In this document: positions 8,886 to 48,404 of the stretch, piece after piece | Layout: every line of letters begins with the position of its first letter | How positions within the stretch are numbered: position 1 is the first letter of the stretch | Origin: Cryptococcus deneoformans JEC21 | Lineage: Eukaryota; Basidiomycota; Tremellomycetes; Tremellales; Cryptococcaceae | Length of the DNA: 64,000 bases | NCBI RefSeq assembly: GCF_000091045.1 | Contig: NC_006680.1 | Location: forward strand, 786,001-850,000 | Reading direction: 5' to 3' | Notes under the pieces: model-generated | Database searches by the model: none | Told to the model about the DNA's origin: nothing | Seen by the model: only the letters and a program-made list of their open reading frames with translations | Program-made: the position numbers and the translations under genes

Positions 8886-9203
8886 TTCTTGTCTTCCTTT
8901 GCAGGGTTCGAAATATTTTTATTGTACTTATCATCTATCTTCTAGACTTTGGGTGTGAATCCACTATGCCAACCATTTTTGCTGGCCAAACGGAGTAGAA
9001 TAGCTGCCGAGAGATCGACGTAACATTCTTTCATCTGTGAAGCACTTTGCTGTCTTCCGCGACCTCCTTTCAGCCTTCCCTTCACATTAACAAAAAGGAT
9101 AGGGCTGTCAGTCGCAGCAAATCTGGAGTCGCGGTGTTAGGCAAAGTTTTAAAAGGTTCAGGTTGGTATTCACAAATTTATTGCGGTTGGCGATATCCGG
9201 AAA
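8886..9203 (+). other. Spacer and promoter of the large charged protein
   Basis: A 318-bp gap between two plus-strand genes. It holds the 3' UTR of the first and the leader of the second. No clear TATA box or ORF is seen. Confidence 0.35.
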
Positions 9204-12200
9204 ATGGAGCCGTACCCCTCCTATGAAGAGGGGTTACCTTCAGAATACCTCTCACCCGAATATATTGATCCCCTATATATTCCGACACCAGAATACCTCC
9301 CATCCGACGAGTACCCACCACCAGCAAGGTACGATATTCCGATGGATTATGGACACCCCGAAGGTTACCAGCCACCATTTCAGCCAGTGTATCAGTTTGT
9401 TCCTCAAGGATACAAAGACAGCGATGCGCTCGATGGCATCATTATAGACGATCACTGGATAGATCCTAACATTGACGATGAGGATGATGTGTGGTCCGAA
9501 GAGTCTTGGATCCCATATTCATCGCATGCAGTGCCCAACCTCAGAGACTCCGCAGTCTCCCCAACAAGTCAAAGTGGCAATCAGCAAGTAGTCATTGCTC
9601 CCCTAACCAATTGGTACCCAACGCCGTCTGACCTTAGACAACATTACTGTGACCTGCATCAATCAGAGTGTCTGCATCAGCAAATGCCTGTAGAAACAAA
9701 CTCGACTGAGAGGAGTAATACTACTCTTGAAGATGATCTGACCCAGGGCACTGACCTGAAGCACATCGATTGGTCAGGAGTCGGACTCGCTTTCACTTTA
9801 CTCCTTATTATTCTTTTCGCGATACACGCGAGCTGGTCAGGCGACGATGAGGAGGAGGGGGAGAACAAGGGAAAAGACAGCCCAGGGAGTAGATCACACA
9901 GTAAAGACAAGAACGAATCGAGTAAAAAAAAAGGAGAAACGAAGAAGGAACAAAAGGAATCAAGAAGCGACAAAGACAACGAGAAAAAAGAAGCAGGAAG
10001 AAAAAACGGTGATGAGAAAGATAATGATAAAGACAAGAAGAAATCAAGTTCAAGGATCTCTTCAAAGAATGACGCTGCCGAGGGTAATGATGACAAGGGA
10101 TCTTTGAAAGGTAAAGGAGAAGGGGAGAAGAAAAAAGATGGGAGCAGCAGCAAGTCTAAAAAACCCAACGATGACAAGAAGTCTTCCGAGAAAAGCGACA
10201 AAGTTGATGGCGACAAGAAATCAGATCCGAAAAAAGATGACAAAGCCGAAGGATTGGAGAAGAAAGACGTTAAGAAGAAGTCTTCGTCCTCAGACGACAA
10301 GAAGGAAGACAAGAGGGGCAGTGGTGGGGAAAAGAAGGAGGAAAGGAATAAGAAGGAGGAAAGGAATAAGGAAGATGAGAACAAAGCAAGCAGGGGCGAG
10401 AAAAAAGAAGATAAGAATTCCAATAGCAGGGAAAAGAAAGACGACAAGAAAGCTGCTGGCGATAAAAAGGAGGATAAAAAGGCAACAGGGGAAAAGAAAG
10501 ATGAGAAGAAAGCAGCAGGCGCAAGTAGAAATAAGGACGATAAGAAATCCGCTACAGGCGAGAAGAGAGATGAGAAAAGGGCTGTTGGAGCAGAAAAGAA
10601 AGATGATAAGAAAGTTGCCGCAGCAGACAAGGACGATAAGAAAGCAGCCGGAGGAAACAGGAAAGACGACAAGGAAGCAACTGGAGCAGAGAAGAAAGCA
10701 GCTGGAGCAGAGAAGAAAGATGATAAAAAAGCCGGAGACACGAAGGCAGAGAGAAAAGTGGAGAAAAAGGAAGTGGAGGGAGAGAGGAAGAAGGACGATA
10801 AGAAAGTAGGAGAGAAAAAACATGACGAAAAAGTGGCCGAAGGTGACAAGAAGAACGACAAAAGCCAAAGCGGACGAAAGAAGCACGATGAGAAAGTAGG
10901 AGAGAAAAAACATGACGAAAAAGTGGCCGGAGGTGACAAGAAGGACGACGAAAGCCAAAGCGGACGAAAGAAGCCTTCTTCTGGAGATAAGGAAGGTGGG
11001 GACAAAAGGCTTGACCATAAGAAGACAGATAAAAAAAATAATGAGGAGAAAGACGACAAAAAAGCTGGAGAGAAAAAGTCTGGAAGCAAGGAGGGCGATA
11101 AGAAGCCGGGAGACAAAAAAGGTGACAAAAAGGCGGAAAATAGGAATGAGGAAGCTGGTAAAAAGCCTGCAAACGAGAAAGAAGCGGTCAATAAGCCAGG
11201 TGAAAAGAAAGAGATGGATAAAAACCCTAAAGATAACAAGGAAATGGACGAGAAACTGGCAGGAGACAAGAAAAATGATGGGAAAAGTGAGAAAAAAGGA
11301 AAAGGGTCTGTATTAGAGGAAAGGGGGGGAGAAGGAAAAGGCGACAAGAAGGAATCGAAGAAGTCCGGAAATGACAAACGGAAGCATGAAAAGAAGTATG
11401 AAGAGGACAAGGAAAGAGAGGGGACGAAAGAAGAAGGCAAGAAGGATAAAAGCGAACAGAAGGATGATCCAAAGAAAGATGGAAAGGGATCATTAACTTC
11501 TGGGTCCAGCAAAACGAAAAACGAGAAAGACGATGAAAGATCGTGGTTCAGTTCTCATATACTAATCGGTCTCTTGCTTCTTCTTCCCTTGCTTGCCATG
11601 ACGGGCCGATCTCGAATGCCTATCATCTATGACCCGGCTGCGAATCGCCCGTCCATTCTGACCGGTAGTGGGCTTGGAGATATACTTGCGTCACCCGTTA
11701 TGGCAGCTTCGAAGGGTCTAAAAAGGGCAACAACCAGTCCAAGGGCAAGCTCGTCTGGCGCTCGATGGGTAGTCAATGAACAACCTGAACCAAAAGCACA
11801 CATTCACATTAACAATGTCAATTCTCAGGGAAACGGTAATCCCATCAACATAAGGGAACCATCGAGTGAACCGGCGGTTGAGATTACTGTCGAGGAATCA
11901 TCGCTTGCTGCCGAGCAATTACTCAATCGACCGCATTCTCCTCCTGTGCTGGAGGAGGAGAGAATTTGGGAGCCAATCAACTTTCGTTTCACAGGTCCTG
12001 CAAATCCCGATCGTCTTTGGAACATGATTTTTGCATGTTTCATAGTTGCGTTGCCGTTGATCGTAGACCAGGTAATGGATTACCCCGAACGCAGGTACTC
12101 ACAGCCAGATTATCTTCCACCAGCCTCCCAACTCATCCTTCTAAGTGCCTCATTCCTCATCTGTGCAGTTATCGGCGACTGGCATTTTGGCTGGTCAAGC

Positions 12201-12491
12201 ACCATCGCCCCGTTTGCAGAAGTCTCCATATCAGGAGCACAGCGCGGTTTGACTCCGTTAATTGTCGGTGTAGTTGAGACAGGCGAGTCTCTAATTTGGA
12301 GTCTTGAAGATGTAATGTTCGGAGATGGGAGAGTCTTGCTGGGAATGGGCCTCGCCGCTCTTGGTGTGGTTTTGTTTAGCCAGAGACAGCCTAGTCTGGA
12401 CGTGCCAAAGACTGACTACGCGTCTAGTACTGTTCAAGCAATGTATTTCTTGGGTGCCTTGTTGATCGGAATGTTTGTATGGAATGCCTAG
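9204..12491 (+). CDS. 1095-residue multi-span protein with giant Lys/Glu/Asp-rich segment
   Basis: One uninterrupted ORF from ATG 9204. Residues 1-190 are acidic and Pro/Tyr-rich (repeated EYLP/EYIP-like steps). A membrane span lies at ~192-213 (FTLLLIILFAI), then ~565 residues of almost pure Lys/Glu/Asp/Ser/Gly with repeated short KKDDKKA/KKEDK-type units, then a second span at ~782-801 (ILIGLLLLLPLLAM). The C-terminal third has four more hydrophobic segments (~940-959, 976-995, ~1043-1060, 1079-1095). The charged segment includes a 30-residue (90-bp) tandem duplication at 10801-10980. No enzyme domain is recognised. The long GC-poor purine-rich track creates a false antisense ORF. This is unusual in an intron-dense genome. 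Function is unknown. Confidence 0.7.
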   Translation: MEPYPSYEEGLPSEYLSPEYIDPLYIPTPEYLPSDEYPPPARYDIPMDYGHPEGYQPPFQPVYQFVPQGYKDSDALDGIIIDDHWIDPNIDDEDDVWSEESWIPYSSHAVPNLRDSAVSPTSQSGNQQVVIAPLTNWYPTPSDLRQHYCDLHQSECLHQQMPVETNSTERSNTTLEDDLTQGTDLKHIDWSGVGLAFTLLLIILFAIHASWSGDDEEEGENKGKDSPGSRSHSKDKNESSKKKGETKKEQKESRSDKDNEKKEAGRKNGDEKDNDKDKKKSSSRISSKNDAAEGNDDKGSLKGKGEGEKKKDGSSSKSKKPNDDKKSSEKSDKVDGDKKSDPKKDDKAEGLEKKDVKKKSSSSDDKKEDKRGSGGEKKEERNKKEERNKEDENKASRGEKKEDKNSNSREKKDDKKAAGDKKEDKKATGEKKDEKKAAGASRNKDDKKSATGEKRDEKRAVGAEKKDDKKVAAADKDDKKAAGGNRKDDKEATGAEKKAAGAEKKDDKKAGDTKAERKVEKKEVEGERKKDDKKVGEKKHDEKVAEGDKKNDKSQSGRKKHDEKVGEKKHDEKVAGGDKKDDESQSGRKKPSSGDKEGGDKRLDHKKTDKKNNEEKDDKKAGEKKSGSKEGDKKPGDKKGDKKAENRNEEAGKKPANEKEAVNKPGEKKEMDKNPKDNKEMDEKLAGDKKNDGKSEKKGKGSVLEERGGEGKGDKKESKKSGNDKRKHEKKYEEDKEREGTKEEGKKDKSEQKDDPKKDGKGSLTSGSSKTKNEKDDERSWFSSHILIGLLLLLPLLAMTGRSRMPIIYDPAANRPSILTGSGLGDILASPVMAASKGLKRATTSPRASSSGARWVVNEQPEPKAHIHINNVNSQGNGNPINIREPSSEPAVEITVEESSLAAEQLLNRPHSPPVLEEERIWEPINFRFTGPANPDRLWNMIFACFIVALPLIVDQVMDYPERRYSQPDYLPPASQLILLSASFLICAVIGDWHFGWSSTIAPFAEVSISGAQRGLTPLIVGVVETGESLIWSLEDVMFGDGRVLLGMGLAALGVVLFSQRQPSLDVPKTDYASSTVQAMYFLGALLIGMFVWNA
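10801..10980 (+). repeat. 90-bp tandem duplication inside the charged segment
   Basis: Two consecutive 90-bp units (10801-10890 and 10891-10980) start with agaaagtaggagag and encode VGEKKHDEKVA-type 30-residue repeats. They differ at only a few bases. The in-frame unit length suggests recent expansion tolerated by the protein. Shorter 18-bp repeats (aaggaggaaaggaataag) occur at ~10334-10370. Confidence 0.85.
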
Positions 12492-41112: not shown

Positions 41113-41534
41113 TTGACACGATGCGGCGAGGCATCTTCTCCTGTCAGCGTAGTTGTAGTGCTTTTTTTCCTGCCAAGAGGACTATACGTCCGTTTGAATG
41201 AATCCATGCATGTACTTGTACGGATTCGATGCATGCTCCTTTTGCAGCAGTGTTCCAGTAGATAACAGAAATACTGTTCTTGATAAGGAGATCCGAAAAA
41301 GCAAACGAGTGGGGAAATCAGGCGCGTCGCGGGCACGCAATAATTGTGAATTGGTGGTCATTTGTTAATTGGCTTGAACGATGTACTTGTATTACATATT
41401 ACTCTGCACTTTCCCTTAACCTTACTGCCCATACACCTTTACCAATCTTTTGGGTCGAAATATCTCGCTATGCACTTGATAAACAGACACTTGATATCCT
41501 TTTCGTAACCCAATCCCGTGGAGCCCAGATATCC
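41113..41534. promoter_or_regulatory. Upstream region of Zn2Cys6 gene
   Basis: 422 bp between tandem plus-strand genes. No gene is seen and no TCGGAGCT motif is present. Confidence 0.4.
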
Positions 41535-44436
41535 ATGGTTTCAATCCCTCGTGGTCGGCCAAACCCGTCCCCGATCTCCAGCAACACCAGCAGAGAAGAC
41601 AGAGGAAATTCTGCATGTTCAGATGTGAGCGATGGTAACAACAATAGCCCGAAGAAACGAAGGAGGAATGAAGATTCCGTACCCAAGGCTTTGCAAGCTT
41701 GCGACAGGTGTCGTACCAAGGTATGGGCATAGTTCACATACAAAAACCTTCCTCATTGAGCTCACCCTTTGTTCTTATAGAAAATCAAATGCCACCCTGC
41801 AGAAAGCTCAGAGTTTTGCCACTCATGTACTATCGCCTCTTTATCTTGCACATACGACCTTCCCATAACCGCCTCCCGTACAAAACGCATACAACGAGGG
41901 TTATCGACTCATCCTCAAACATCACAACAACTTCCTTCCTTTTCTTCTGGCCAAGCAGATGTGCCACCACCAAATACCGCCGAACATGTTCTTTTCGATC
42001 CAGAGACTATGGCAAGTCATGGGCCTGTTGAAACACATCAGAGCAGAGACACCAATGCCTCCGAAAGGCGCGAAATTGAAAGTCAATTCACAACAGGGGT
42101 TGCCTTACGACGAAGAGGGCGTACTGTTGGCTTGACTCAGGGTCGTGCCTCTTCTTCTGTTAGACGTGAGGGTGGGTTATAGCTATTCAGTCTCCAGTTT
42201 CTCAATCTGACCGCGACTGCCCCAATGATAGGTGCCACCGCATTGTCGTACATCCTGCATTCAACTCCTACACTGCCAGTTGCCAGTCTCTCTGAATTCG
42301 ATCGTGCAAACGGCCTTTCAATGTGCTTTTCATCGTCTGATACTTCTATGGATGGCGATGGCTTCATGCTCATTACTACCGAATGCACGACGTTTGAAAC
42401 TATCGACGACCAGGCTGTCGAGCCCCCACCTTATGTTTTCGAAGCACTACACTCTCCAAGCTGGAAAGAAGTGATCAATCGATTAGCAATGACCTTTATC
42501 GATCACATTAGCCCGTTTATACCTGTGGTGATCCGAACGGAGATGGGTGAGGTGGGTCAGCTGGTCTTGTACGCGATGGCTGGCGTAGCTGCAGCTAGAC
42601 GGGATTGTCCTAAGGAGATTTTTGATTGTTTGAGATATATCATCAAGCAAGAGATACATGATCGAGGTATGTTCAAATATCTTCCATCACTGGGTAAGGT
42701 ACCTTGGTAGTTTCTGACGCAGGTTTAATCAGATGCATTGAGCAATCCGACCCGCGAGAATGTTCAAATCCTTCTTACTACCTGCCTCGTAGACGAATTG
42801 GCGCTTGATTGTGGAACGGCTGCTCCCCCTTCTGTGCAACGGACAAGATTATCGGCCGCTATATGCATGGTACGTGAGACACTTATACTCTCATTTAAGT
42901 CCTCAAATTGGCTTATAAGGGTTCAACTCTAGGCTAGAGATTTGAATATGGATCAACCTGCCCGAGGAACGACCTTAGGAGAATCAAATGCTCGTATATG
43001 GCAGTGTGCAGTAATTATCGACCAGTGGTATGAATTCAGTTGTATTGATATTCAATCAATATGCGACTAATTTCTGTGCTATACCTGTAGGAACGCAGCA
43101 CGCTACGGCGTCCGACCACTCATCCTTGACTTCTTATCGTCATCATCATCAGCAACAATTTCAAGGGATCTTACCGATAATAAGTTCTTTCAACATCTTT
43201 ATAGCCTTTCAGCCATCCTTCGTCGGATAATAGATAAAGTCTATGGAGTTGAAGGGTTGAAAAATACAGAGGACGAAGATTTGCTTCAGATAGCGGAAGA
43301 AGTGTCGAGATGGAAAAAAGAATTACATCGTGATCTTCATTTCACTGGTGATTCGTCCAGCCTTCCGTCTGGTATGCTCATCTCTCTCCCAAATATCAAT
43401 CAGAAATACTGACAGTCTGGTATAGGGATTCTCCATATATTACACACTGCTATTATGATCCTCCTCTACCGTCCTTTCATGCGCTGGTCATTCATCGTCC
43501 CCCAATCCCTCTCACTCGACCTAAACCTCGAAGTCTGGACACTCATCTGCCCAGCTGCTCGTTCCAGCCTCGAATGGGCCGCTAACCGGGAAGATCCCTT
43601 TGAATTCTTGTTCTTTGGACCTTATGCCTTGGGTTTGTCATGTTTGATACAGTATCATTCATATGCGAGAAGGAGGGAATGGGATGGGGTAGTCGTGCTG
43701 GAAAGATTGCTTATGAATGGGATTGGGAAATGGGCTCCGAGTTGGGCTCATTTACCTCTCCAAGCGGCAGTGAGTAGAGAAAATCATGAATTATCGTCAT
43801 GAGAAAAATCTTTGACTTATGTGATCAACATAGCAACTGTCCGTTGTACAGCTGTTATACTCATCCACCCAGAGGACCCTTCCTTCGTCCTTTCACCATC
43901 CAAATACTTCTGCGCGTGGACTCAATCCAACACCAGGAATATTCAACAGACTCCCCGAAACAGCGGTGAACGGGATTACTTTTTTGAGGGATCCAAGTCA
44001 TCCAGAGGGCGGGGTGCTGGTCGCCACGCGGCAGGCTGCGAGGGAGATCAAGGATTTACCGCCTGGGACAGTTATCATCGGAGGGCCTCTGTCGCCGGAA
44101 GAGATGGATGGTGATCCTGTTGTCAGTGGAAGAACACAGACACGACCGGTAGGTGGTAATGAAGTCGAGATGAGCCTCAGTAATGGAGGAGGTGAGGTAG
44201 TTCCTGTAGATGATGGAAGAGGAATGACAGGGATGATGCCCTTGACAAATATCCCTGGATTGTCGGCCCTGCCGAATTCAGAATCAGCAACTGTTTTGGA
44301 CTCCTTTGCGCGTCTGGCTGGGAGCCAATTCGCTAACCATTACATGCCTGACCTGTCAGTAGATGGCGCAATCACTTCGGCCTCGACAGCGGATTGGGAA
44401 GCCATCGTATCGTCATTGACATATCCAGGCTTCTAG
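41535..44436 (+). CDS. Zn2Cys6 fungal-specific transcription factor (block A)
   Basis: Start ATG 41535 (MVSIPRGRPNPSPIS). After a Ser/Asn/Lys-rich leader the binuclear zinc cluster reads CDRCRTK, an intron, then KIKCHPAESSEFCHSCTIASLSC. All six Cys are present with C-x2-C-x6-C ... C-x2-C-x6-C spacing. Later exons read YVFEALHSPSWKEVINRLAM, FIPVVIRTEMG, LVLYAMAGVAAARR and LILDFLSSSSSAT, and a helical region with HTAIMILLYRPFMRW typical of the fungal_trans middle homology domain. The C-terminal region (ALPNSESATVLDSFARLAGSQF) is acidic/hydrophobic and may activate transcription. It sits next to five metabolic/transport genes and could regulate them; direct evidence is only proximity. Confidence 0.9.
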
Positions 44437-44552: not shown

Positions 44553-47112
44553 TCACAAAGACTCAAGGAAATCAAATATGGCCCTATGCCATTTGGAAAA
44601 CGCCCATCTATCTGATACCAGTATCTCACTGTTGACTCCTCGACTTTGCAAAAGCGCAAAAGAGGCGTAGCTTTGCGATAGAGGGCCAGCGTCGCAGTCA
44701 TCTGGGGCAGATTTTAGCGTGGATTACGTGCACACATCTCGGAACTCACTTCGACCATCGTGGATAACTAATTCTGGTATGGCCCATTCACGGGACGAAC
44801 GCTCAGGATCCCAGAGCGAACTGATAAACATAGATTAATTTCAGTCATTGGCACGGGAGCAGGGATGCCAATAACTTACAATGGTGACTCATCATCATAC
44901 GAGACTTCGCCAAATTCCCACTCTACCTTCGCTGGGCAAGATGTCTCTGCTGCCCACCACCTAGGAGACAGTACGCCATCATGAACCACTAATCCCTTCC
45001 ATCTCACTGGCTCCCCATTGGAAGCGACAAAGGCGGTGGAGTGGCCTTGTATCCAATGAATAACAAATCCGCCATAGGCGCCATAACCCATTGCCGTGAC
45101 GCTGGTATTGTTCAGGTTAGGAAATAGGTTGAAAGAATGGAAAAGACCGCGGGAAATGTCGTTTATAGTTTGATTACCCCAATTAAACCGGCCCGACTGG
45201 GCAAAGTCTAGCAACCAGTTAGTAACATGTTAAATGAAGATCGTATATGCATTTGCACTCACAGTTACCGTAGCCTTCGGAGCCTGTAGGGTTGATAGTA
45301 ACCACAGCATATCCCTCACTGGTCAAGGCTGCGATATTCAGTCCTGAAATGGAAAGGAGATCAATTAGAAGACCTACCGTTCTGATTCCAATACTGCATC
45401 CACTGATTACGCCATCCTTCGCTGTTACCATCGCCATGCAGCAACAGCACGACTGGTACCTTCTCCTGTGATTTATTTTTACTAGGAAGAAATACCTTCC
45501 CCTTCACGGTCAACCCTAACTCATTCACGAACTCTATACTTTCACCCGCATTTAGCTGTCTTCCTTGTAGTACCGGTTCACTGAAATATGTCAACCTGAT
45601 GTTCTCATAATTGTAGGTCGGATCATCATGAGGCGAGTGTGAAATGACCCAAAGTTCGTGAGCCGATGTAAGAGAAGACATCACGCCTATTAAATGTGAA
45701 TGATCAAGAGGGGTAATGCCGACGTGATATACAGAGTGGATTGTGCCATTAGACGGGATCCGCACAGGTGTAGAAGGGGGCGATGATCGAGTAGGGGTCC
45801 AGATGTGGAAAAGTGATGTGTCTTGGTCATTGAGAGTAAGAAGATTGAGAGCCTCGCTGTTTTCCGAAAACTGTGGATCCAAGTGAGTCAAATGATGTGC
45901 CGCTTGTGTCACTGGTCAGCGGATTTCATGGCTTACGATAACCCTTGATGGACTCAGGTCCCAATCCTTGAATGGAACTTTCCAAGGGGTATGACCATCA
46001 TACATCCATAGGTCTTTTCGTCCTCCCCAATTCCCATTATCTCGTTGCTCAAGCCAAGCGATCTGACCATTAGAGCTCAGGGCTGGAGAAAATACAGCAC
46101 CAAAACTGCCTGAGCTAATTTGTACCGCGAATGAAGGGGAGAATAAATCAAGGAAGTAGAGCTACATGCAAATCAGCCTTTGGTTTCATCAAATACGAGT
46201 ATGACTAGAATTCATACTTACGATGCTTCGGGTAGCATTATTGGGCCTAATGACAGGCTTATGAGCAGTGAAAGCTATGGCAGAATCATTTGCGGCGAGT
46301 TCGTCGATAATCTGCATTTTTGGGCGCTCAATCAAGTATCTATTCATAGGTCAGCCAGGATGATCGGACTCACCAGGTCGTTTTCGAGGAAAACGGTTAA
46401 TTGCTCGACTGTCCAGACCTCATCTAGTTTAGAAATGGACAGTAGTGTCAACGGGCCAAGAGATCCAGCAAATTCGTCTTTGGAACCCCCACCAAGAACA
46501 ATAGAGAGTATCTTCGGTCCGGCAGAATACAGCATACTCTCTGGCCTCCTATTTCCCAACCGAACGGTCTTCAGGATAGTTGGCTCAGAGGCAGTTGGTG
46601 CCCATGCTGGTGGAAGAGTTGTATAGTTGAGAACTTGAAGCGTAAGATCCCAGGAACCGAAGGAAGACTGTGAAGGCAGAAGGGTAACGAAGATATCGTT
46701 GGTGATGAACGAATAGAGTGCAGCCGGATGGGTCGGACCATGAAGGGCGGTGGGGACCGTGTATTGGGCATTGATAGCAAGAAGATGGAGGTCATACGAT
46801 GGTCTACGATGTATCATGATCAACTATGAGCTAGTTATGATAAGCAGAACGAGCTACTGGCCCCAAAGGCACTTACATATCTGTTTCAACATCTATGGTA
46901 GCAGTGCGGATGACAGAAGCGTCACCGGCAGGATTAAGTGTCCAAGTGTCTATGATGGGAATGGAGACTACATCTTGCCATGGCAGTCCAGTGTTCTCCG
47001 AAAAAGCTCCTGAGCTGGATAATGCTCCGTTGTTGAAGGTCTTTTGTTGGTAAGGAGCCGCAAGCGATATGGCAGCAGCGAAAACGATTAGGAAAGAAGC
47101 TGATGTTCTCAT
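44553..47112 (-). CDS. DPP5-like S9 peptidase homologue, catalytically broken
   Basis: Secreted: ATG 47112 gives signal peptide MRTSASFLIVFAAAISLAA. The middle is beta-propeller-like (repeats such as WDLTLQVLNYTTLP, SLFHIWTPTR). The C-terminal alpha/beta-hydrolase part reads VPVVLLLHGDGNSEGW, YAVVTINPTGSEGYG, MGYGAYGGFVIHWIQGH, KGLVVHDGV and ELVIHDGRNDCD. In dipeptidyl-peptidase 5 the nucleophile elbow is G-x-S-Y-G-G. Here the Ser position is Ala (codon 45077-45079, GAYGG). After LLQSRGVNSEIL the usual DENHW segment with the catalytic His is missing (SDRWAFSKWH). The Asp position (NDCD) remains. It is therefore probably a non-peptidase binding or regulatory protein, while the reading frame and splicing look intact. 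Family certain; loss of activity is inferred. Confidence 0.85.
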
Positions 47113-47478: not shown

Positions 47479-48404
47479 TCAAGCCCATTCTCTGCCACCT
47501 CCTAAGACAATAACCTGCCCATCCACATAGCTTCCCGCTTGACTAGCCAACCAGATTGCTGTACCTGCTATATCCTCCTCCTTGCCACCTCTTTTGAGCG
47601 GTACTAGCTCATGTGCCCTGGCTAACATGCTCTTAGGATTGCTAGGATCATTCATCTGACTAGGGAAGTACCCAGGAGAGATTGCATTTACACGGATCCC
47701 ATGCTCACGGAATTTACTGGCTTGCAAGAGAGTGAGATGATTGAGAGCCGCCTTTGACGCTTGATAGGCAGGCTGGCTTATGACAGGGTCGGACATGGTG
47801 GATCCGATGGACGAGATGTTGATGATTCGTCCGCCCGCTGGAGCTGCAGCTAGTAGATGAAGCGCGGATGCCGATAAAAAGAAAAGGGATTCAACATTTG
47901 TTGAAAAAGTGCGAGACCATGTTTCGTGCGGCGAAGCTAAAAGGGCAGCTTGGAGCTCGGGCAAAGGGGTGAACTGATTGCAAGGCGTGTCGGGAAGCAC
48001 GATACCTGCGCAGTTGATTAGAACGTCGAGCTTGCTCAGGGAAGCGACGAGTGAGGTGATGGAGGGTCTGTCGGAAATATCTGCCACATGACTGGGTACG
48101 TATGAGAATAATGATACTGATTACAGACCAACGGTCTCTCACATGTGAACGTGAGCTTCTGGGTTAAGTTCAAGAATCGTGACCTTGGCTTCCTCCAGTT
48201 TTTCGCGTCTGCGGCCTGCGATATGGGTGACTGCACCGTTCATGGCCATGCCCTTGGCCATATAGAGTCCTGTATATATTTTAGTTCATTAGATTTTCCT
48301 TCCATACCAAGGCTTCACTCACCGAGACCTGTTCCGGCGCCAGTGATGAGGACATCGAGACCGTTTACCGAGAACAGATTGTTTATGGAGAACTGATGAG
48401 ACAT
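47479..48404 (-). CDS. Short-chain dehydrogenase/reductase (block A)
   Basis: Classical SDR oxidoreductase. ATG 48404 begins MSHQFSINNLFSVNGLDVLITGAGTGLG; the GAGTGLG nucleotide-binding motif is split by an intron and continues LYMAKGMAMNGA. HIAGRRREKLEEAK suggests a coenzyme-selecting Arg-rich loop (possibly NADP). Downstream are INCAGIVLP, INISSIGS (catalytic Ser), AYQASKAAL (Tyr-x3-Lys) and VNAISPGYFPSQMN, ending GGGREWA. The catalytic set is complete. The substrate is unknown. It is divergent from the DHA2 transporter, with a shared intergenic region. Confidence 0.9.

What the first reader, a model, noticed from the sequence alone, without database searches (positions are those of the whole stretch)
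44553..47112. Secreted DPP5-like protein with catalytic Ser and His lost but gene intact
In sequence: the nucleophile elbow reads MGYGAYGGF where DPP5 relatives have a G-x-S-Y-G-G elbow (Ala codon at 45077-45079), and the DENHW segment bearing the catalytic His is absent. Signal peptide, propeller-like part, flanking WIQGH and HDGV motifs and open frame are kept. A disabled but maintained S9 protein points to a new role such as peptide binding, inhibition or signalling.
Basis: partly seen in the sequence, partly recalled or inferred. Interest (0 to 1): 0.75.

Follow-up and report, generated by a model that had tools for sequence, protein, structure and literature searches.

The report
Dead secreted protease kept, then trimmed
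A Cryptococcus-type yeast carries a secreted protein that looks like a protease but lost its cutting residues long ago; relatives keep it in that state, and some seem to have dropped the dead cutting half while keeping the rest, so it probably works by binding something rather than cutting it.

Summary
The window holds an intact nine-exon, 695-residue gene (minus strand, 47112-44553) for a secreted-looking S9C/DPP5-like protein with Ala at the nucleophile position and an 8-residue deletion over the DENHW segment. It is not a local error: 6 of 6 full-length relatives with the site also have Ala and HGD for HGGP, and 4 of 4 with a readable C-terminus lack DENHW. The same genome has a separate intact DPP5. 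New here: 13 relatives in Kwoniella and the Cryptococcus amylolentus/wingfieldii group are annotated as the beta-propeller alone, ending at nearly the same point, and a search found no separate hydrolase domain. In 12 of these the last blade is about 85% identical, residues 151-300 only 24-32%. Best reading: an ancient secreted pseudopeptidase that acts by binding, mainly through its propeller. The ligand is unknown; six invariant histidines hint at a metal or ligand site. The propeller-only state rests on annotated proteins, not on DNA that I could read, and dN/dS could not be computed.

The parts
44553..47112 (-). whole gene, 9 exons (47112-46877, 46803-46374, 46311-46222, 46161-45937, 45870-45378, 45328-45263, 45207-44880, 44820-44750, 44701-44553), 695 aa
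   Evidence: junctions 1-7 match P0001; last exon matches the annotated relatives P0002-P0004
47056..47112 (-). N-terminal signal-peptide-like stretch (aa 1-19)
   Evidence: read by eye from the translation; no predictor run
45577..46962 (-). beta-propeller part (about aa 51-425, introns included)
   Evidence: models of relatives P0002 and P0016, fold matches
45583..45768 (-). last blade, aa 362-423: most conserved part of the family, with invariant H376, H384, H386, H405
44553..45576 (-). inactive alpha/beta-hydrolase domain (aa 426-695)
   Evidence: PF00326 at aa 486-675; alignment
45430..45438 (-). HGD (aa 472-474) in place of HGG of the HGGP motif
45077..45079 (-). Ala557 codon at the place of the catalytic Ser
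44951..44968 (-). SPRWWA (aa 594-599): motif SPxxWA, fixed in 7 of 7 inactive proteins, absent from the active paralogue
44697..44762 (-). HDGRND (aa 643-648, spans intron 8): place of the catalytic Asp loop; the Asp column is N, D or G among the seven rows
44616..44621 (-). junction L674/V675 where 8 residues with the catalytic His (FPDENHWI in the active paralogue) are missing
   Evidence: exact gap place depends on the alignment
47479..48087 (-). neighbouring short-chain dehydrogenase gene (part), upstream on the same strand
   Evidence: Pfam; 72% identity over 136 residues to the N-terminal part of P0005 of Naematelia, in which it is joined to the DPP5-like protein

Best explanation
The gene encodes an ancient, secreted, catalytically dead S9C (DPP5-like) protein. 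Shown: nucleophile and catalytic His lost, the loss shared across Tremellales and one Trichosporonales species, complete proteins annotated in all of these, an active-looking DPP5 elsewhere in the genome. Inferred: a duplicated S9C gene lost catalysis before these lineages split, was kept for a non-catalytic binding role borne mainly by the propeller and above all by its last blade, and the hydrolase half, kept as a scaffold or pocket in some lineages, was later discarded in Kwoniella and in the C. amylolentus group. It works by binding an extracellular ligand or partner, not by cutting.
For: Ala at the elbow and HGD in 7 of 7 full-length members (own + 6 relatives), DENHW missing in 5 of 5 with readable C-terminus (own, P0002, P0003, P0004, P0006). 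Relatives only 43-51% identical to ours are still complete annotated proteins (P0004-P0006). 25 of 63 hydrolase positions that are invariant among the inactive rows (letters in at least 5 of 7) differ from the active paralogue, so the dead domain has fixed residues of its own (one active comparator). 13 propeller-only relatives ending within six residues after RLT.[FL]T; propeller-only P0016 predicted well, pLDDT 88.6, pTM 0.84. Last blade (362-423) 85-86% identical among 12 propeller-only rows against 24-32% in residues 151-300. Spliced transcript-like contig. SDR neighbour shared with Naematelia.
Against: No ligand, assay or phenotype was found. In full-length members the hydrolase half is about as conserved as the propeller, with pairs leaning either way (own to P0004 54% versus 55%, to P0005 51% versus 43%, to P0021 44% versus 51%), so it is constrained too and the propeller may not be the only working part. 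The propeller-only state rests on gene models; no DNA was readable. The gene tree does not show two separate losses: the truncated rows form one group with weak support 58/63, and a Cryptococcus clade is not rejected, p-AU 0.181. The full-length model has only moderate confidence (pLDDT 74.1, pTM 0.64). His enrichment among invariant columns is modest (6 of 48, binomial P 0.010). Annotated proteins have no stops by construction, so frame-keeping in relatives is weaker evidence than dN/dS would be.
Confidence: 0.72

Rival explanations
1. Regulatory partner of the active DPP5: the dead protein pairs with the intact DPP5 of the same cell, in the way that DPP6 and DPP10 act as non-enzymatic subunits, and tunes its activity or secretion.
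For: DPP5 with full catalytic motifs in the same genome; both have secretion-like N-termini by eye; full-length members keep the fold.
Against: DPP4-like dimers use propeller and hydrolase loops (PMC4350108 passages), and the hydrolase half is missing in 13 annotated relatives. Only 22% propeller identity to the DPP5 of the same genome.
Confidence: 0.15
2. A secreted metal- or small-ligand-binding propeller: invariant histidines of the last blade form the site.
For: H85, H349, H376, H384, H386, H405 are His in every row that has a letter (18 or 19 of 19); five of the six are not His in the active DPP5, two of these five by a gap there. Strand limits in both models place H376, H384, H386 and H405 on one face of the last blade (inference).
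Against: No coordinates could be read, so clustering is not shown; His among 48 invariant columns is enriched only at P 0.010; blade faces are usually buried (recalled).
Confidence: 0.12
3. Still an enzyme, using another nucleophile or another chemistry in the old cleft.
For: 25 newly fixed residues in the dead domain, with D474 and D644 near the former site in sequence.
Against: No Ser, Cys, Thr or Asp at the elbow in 7 of 7; the window protein's only cysteines, 604 and 649, lie elsewhere; His segment deleted; domain absent in 13 annotated relatives.
Confidence: 0.05
4. Local sequencing error, wrong gene model, or decaying pseudogene.
For: None beyond the loss of catalytic residues.
Against: Same losses in 6 of 6 full-length relatives with the elbow; transcript-like spliced contig.
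Confidence: 0.03

Closest known systems
Fungal secreted dipeptidyl-peptidase 5 (MEROPS S9C), including the intact copy in this genome (L012, contig 9)
   Same: Signal-like N-terminus, propeller plus alpha/beta-hydrolase, INPTGS.GYG, W.., H.G and PEL.I motifs
   Different: Ser to Ala, DENHW deleted, HGGP to HGD, Asp column N, D or G; 31% identity in the hydrolase domain
DPP6/DPPX and DPP10/DPPY (S9B pseudopeptidases of animals)
   Same: S9 two-domain proteins without enzyme activity and with another role (PMC4873792: start of abstract in the listing; PMC4350108: listing and passages)
   Different: Those are S9B proteins acting on Kv4 channels; ours is closest to S9C structures, has also lost the His segment, and has relatives without the hydrolase half
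Solved S9C peptidases 8wt1, 7ep9, 5yzm
   Same: Among the best fold matches of the full-length relative P0002 over nearly its whole length, TM 0.57-0.67 by query length
   Different: Enzymes with GGSYGG (or GGAYGG in the engineered Ala mutant 5yzo) and HGGP; that they are active is from entry titles and general knowledge
Fungal pseudonucleases of the RNase II family (PMC8097288, listing and start of abstract only)
   Same: Repeated loss of catalysis in a kept fungal family that then acts by binding
   Different: Unrelated fold and substrate

Membership tests
S9C dipeptidyl-peptidase 5 (active enzyme) | Propeller followed by alpha/beta-hydrolase of the S9 type | tested here: met
   PF00326 E 1.5e-18; model of relative P0002 matches 8wt1, E 8.5e-28
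S9C dipeptidyl-peptidase 5 (active enzyme) | Ser nucleophile in GxSxGG | tested here: not met
   Ala557; Ala in 7 of 7 full-length members
S9C dipeptidyl-peptidase 5 (active enzyme) | Catalytic His in DENHW | tested here: not met
   8-residue deletion (two more residues missing in P0006), 5 of 5 with readable C-terminus
S9C dipeptidyl-peptidase 5 (active enzyme) | Catalytic Asp in GKDYR | tested here: inconclusive
   Aligned column is N (3), D (3) or G (1) in the seven rows; the next residue is D in 6 of 7
S9C dipeptidyl-peptidase 5 (active enzyme) | HGGP motif | tested here: not met
   HGD in 7 of 7
S9C dipeptidyl-peptidase 5 (active enzyme) | Secretion signal | tested here: inconclusive
   read by eye only
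S9C dipeptidyl-peptidase 5 (active enzyme) | Dipeptidyl-peptidase activity | not testable with these tools
   needs protein
S9 homology (descent from S9C) | Recognisable sequence relation of both halves | tested here: met
   Hydrolase half by Pfam; propeller-only profile to the active DPP5 by hhalign, prob 82, E 1.1e-5 over 123 columns
DPP6/DPP10-type pseudopeptidases | S9B type | tested here: not met
   Best sequence and fold matches are S9C-type entries; DPP8 weaker (E 2e-7 versus 9.7e-17)
DPP6/DPP10-type pseudopeptidases | Auxiliary subunit of a potassium channel | not testable with these tools
   needs protein interaction data

The most novel reading that the evidence does not exclude
A secreted protease died before Tremellales and Trichosporonales split, its propeller took on a histidine-rich ligand- or metal-binding site in the last blade that the active paralogue lacks, and the dead catalytic half was then shed at nearly the same domain border in two lineages (Kwoniella and the C. 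amylolentus group), leaving a free-standing secreted propeller family without a Pfam model of its own (precomputed Pfam empty in 13 of 13; none over cut-off in the 4 scanned).
Probability: 0.2. Interest if true: 0.8.

Novelty: new variant of a known kind. Interest (0 to 1): 0.6.

Why it matters
Inactive S9 proteins with a kept role are best known from animals (DPP6, DPP10). Here is a fungal, secreted-looking S9C case old enough to compare across two orders, with a second step: the dead catalytic half is absent from whole groups while the other half stays conserved. That offers a natural dissection of which half carries the role. Surveys of fungal serine proteases can miss such proteins: one states that it dismissed fragmented and likely inactive homologues (PMC5567314, passages). 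The C. deuterogattii relative is named a dipeptidyl-peptidase in UniRef, so it may be counted as a protease that it is not.

Tried and rejected
Local error or pseudogene: rejected by the relatives. Alternative nucleophile: rejected at the elbow in 7 of 7. A separately annotated hydrolase domain in Kwoniella: a search with the hydrolase half alone (571 candidates) returned only P0014, a piece that resembles C. gattii exon 5 with flanking introns read through; remote or unannotated copies are not excluded. Other copies in the own genome: besides the gene itself only the C9 DPP5 matched (four candidates scored); the other PF00326 places on C10 (two genes), C14 and C5 were looked at, whose output was cut, and look by eye like two prolyl-oligopeptidase-type genes, a DPP4-type gene and another alpha/beta-hydrolase. 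My first intron 5 (34 nt) was dropped for the 49-nt version. dN/dS: not possible, no orthologous DNA. Clustering of histidines in 3D: no model coordinates were among the files; only strand limits were used. Position of the two truncated Cryptococcus rows: unresolved. P0020 (second K. mangroviensis strain) was left out of the tree and of the conservation table; P0001 (same gene as the window) and P0014 (a fragment) were left out of the counts of relatives.

In the listings I saw no paper on this protein; one search listed 15 of 50 papers, 10 of 19, 12 of 20. DPP5 with pseudoenzyme gave 0 papers, prolyl oligopeptidase with pseudoenzyme and fungi 0. The library holds open-licence papers only, so this does not show that nothing is in print. 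PMC4556806 (passages) reports S9 peptidase domains among lineage-specific genes of C. gattii and two S9 peptidases lost in lineage VGII; our family is present in C. deuterogattii (P0002), and I could not tell whether those genes belong to it. PMC11185503: passages and section 6. PMC12345193: one passage, on Aspergillus DPP5.

Full report
Locus. The window is contig 11, 786001-850000, of a 19.05 Mb genome in 14 contigs. From memory of the chromosome lengths this is Cryptococcus deneoformans JEC21; no tool named it. The gene lies on the minus strand, 47112-44553, in nine exons, 695 residues. Introns are 48-73 nt, 472 nt in all, with GC 43% against 48% in exons.

Transcript support. Database protein P0001 is identical to the model through exon 8 and then reads into intron 8 for eight residues (654 in all). 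Its longest contig is 2,151 bases; the genomic stretch from the start codon to that stop is 2,389 bases and holds seven introns, so the contig must come from spliced RNA. The source tag 'lgn' does not splice by itself: P0014, from the same source, reads through introns 4 and 5 (my reading). So the gene is transcribed and spliced, and a form with intron 8 kept exists. These are inferences from the records, not expression data.

What is lost. Aligned with the intact DPP5 of the same genome (L012, 750 residues, 12 exons joined, PF00326 E 6.1e-58), the window protein has Ala557 for the Ser, one extra residue just before it, HGD for HGGP, and an 8-residue deletion that takes away FPDENHWI. The column of the catalytic Asp is Asn here. 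The overall S9C character is kept: INPTGS.GYG, WI, HDGV, PELVI.

How old the loss is. They gave 21 distinct proteins; the 19 that bear a name are all from Tremellomycetes, and P0001 and P0014 bear none. In some searches only the 7,997 and 7,998 candidates sharing most words were scored, so absence elsewhere is not shown. Six full-length relatives carry the elbow: C. deuterogattii, C. gattii VGV, Cryptococcus sp. DSM 104549, Naematelia encephala, Tremellales sp. Uapishka_1 and Cryptotrichosporon argae (Trichosporonales). All six have Ala and HGD; the four with a readable C-terminus lack DENHW (with our own, 5 of 5; in P0006 two further residues are missing). The models P0005 and P0021 end before that point. 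One paper dates the Cryptococcus-Kwoniella split to about 110 million years (PMC11185503, section 6 read in full). Naematelia belongs to another family and Cryptotrichosporon to another order, so the loss should be older than that split; this is my inference.

Maintenance. Complete proteins at 43-51% identity with constant motifs speak against neutral decay, though annotated proteins are free of stops by construction and dN/dS could not be computed. In the hydrolase half 63 positions are invariant among the inactive proteins (letters in at least 5 of 7 rows): 38 shared with the active paralogue and 25 not, among them D474, H564, S594, P595, W598, A599 and D644. With only one active comparator this is a lead that the dead domain took on its own constraints.

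The propeller-only relatives. Thirteen proteins of 326-457 residues from ten Kwoniella species and from C. amylolentus and C. wingfieldii align with the propeller only and end within six residues after RLT.[FL]T. Their precomputed Pfam field is empty in 13 of 13; of four scanned, none reached a curated cut-off. In the window gene this end falls inside exon 5, not at an exon border. A search with the hydrolase half alone found no separate gene. A profile of the propeller-only set still finds the active DPP5 (prob 82, E 1.1e-5), so these are S9 descendants. The model of P0016 has pLDDT 88.6 and pTM 0.84, which agrees with a self-standing fold; its best fold matches, all modest in TM-score, are S9 enzymes and TolB.

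One loss or two. If Cryptococcus and Kwoniella are distinct clades, as that paper finds, two losses are needed, because the pathogenic species are full-length and C. amylolentus, named there among the Cryptococcus species, is not. The gene tree cannot decide: the truncated rows form one side of a branch with support 58/63, and a Cryptococcus clade is not rejected (p-AU 0.181). Differential loss of two old copies is possible too.

Where the constraint sits. Among the 12 propeller-only rows examined, residues 362-423 are 85-86% identical, residues 84-100 are 77%, and residues 151-300 only 24-32%. The last blade carries H376, H384, H386 and H405; with H85 and H349 six histidines are constant in every row that has a letter. 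Five of the six are not His in the active paralogue, two of them because of a gap there. From the strand limits in both models the four last-blade histidines have the same parity across paired strands and should point to one face; this is an inference and assumes no bulge. The enrichment of His is modest (P 0.010).

Against the reading. In full-length members both halves are about equally conserved, with pairs leaning either way, so the hydrolase half is not idle there. The propeller-only state comes from annotation. No ligand is known. The exon-by-exon Pfam scan of the genome did not list this gene, a sign of how far it has drifted. A partner role with the active DPP5 is not excluded for the full-length forms, but it does not fit easily with relatives that lack the hydrolase half, which supplies part of the dimer interface in DPP10 (PMC4350108, passages).

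Verdict. The finding is larger than reported: an old family of secreted-looking dead S9C proteins in Tremellomycetes, with a propeller-only branch. I rate it a new variant of a known kind.

Noticed in passing
44702-44749: Intron 8 is kept in the database protein P0001, which replaces the last exon by eight new residues and a stop; a shorter isoform may exist.
   Followed up: partly
47479-48120: Short-chain dehydrogenase gene upstream on the same strand; in Naematelia encephala the two neighbours are annotated as one protein (P0005), probably a merged gene model that shows shared gene order.
   Followed up: partly
9153-12491: A 1,112-residue stop-to-stop frame rich in Lys, Asp and Glu with a 625-residue frame on the opposite strand (9677-11554); low-complexity sequence.
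   Followed up: no
L012 840-3714: DPP5 paralogue on contig 9 with complete catalytic motifs and a signal-like start.
   Followed up: yes
41262-44436: Zinc-cluster-like frame (CDRCRTKVW) at 41262-41732 and a later frame ending at 44436 on the plus strand, possibly one regulator gene convergent to the DPP5-like gene.
   Followed up: no
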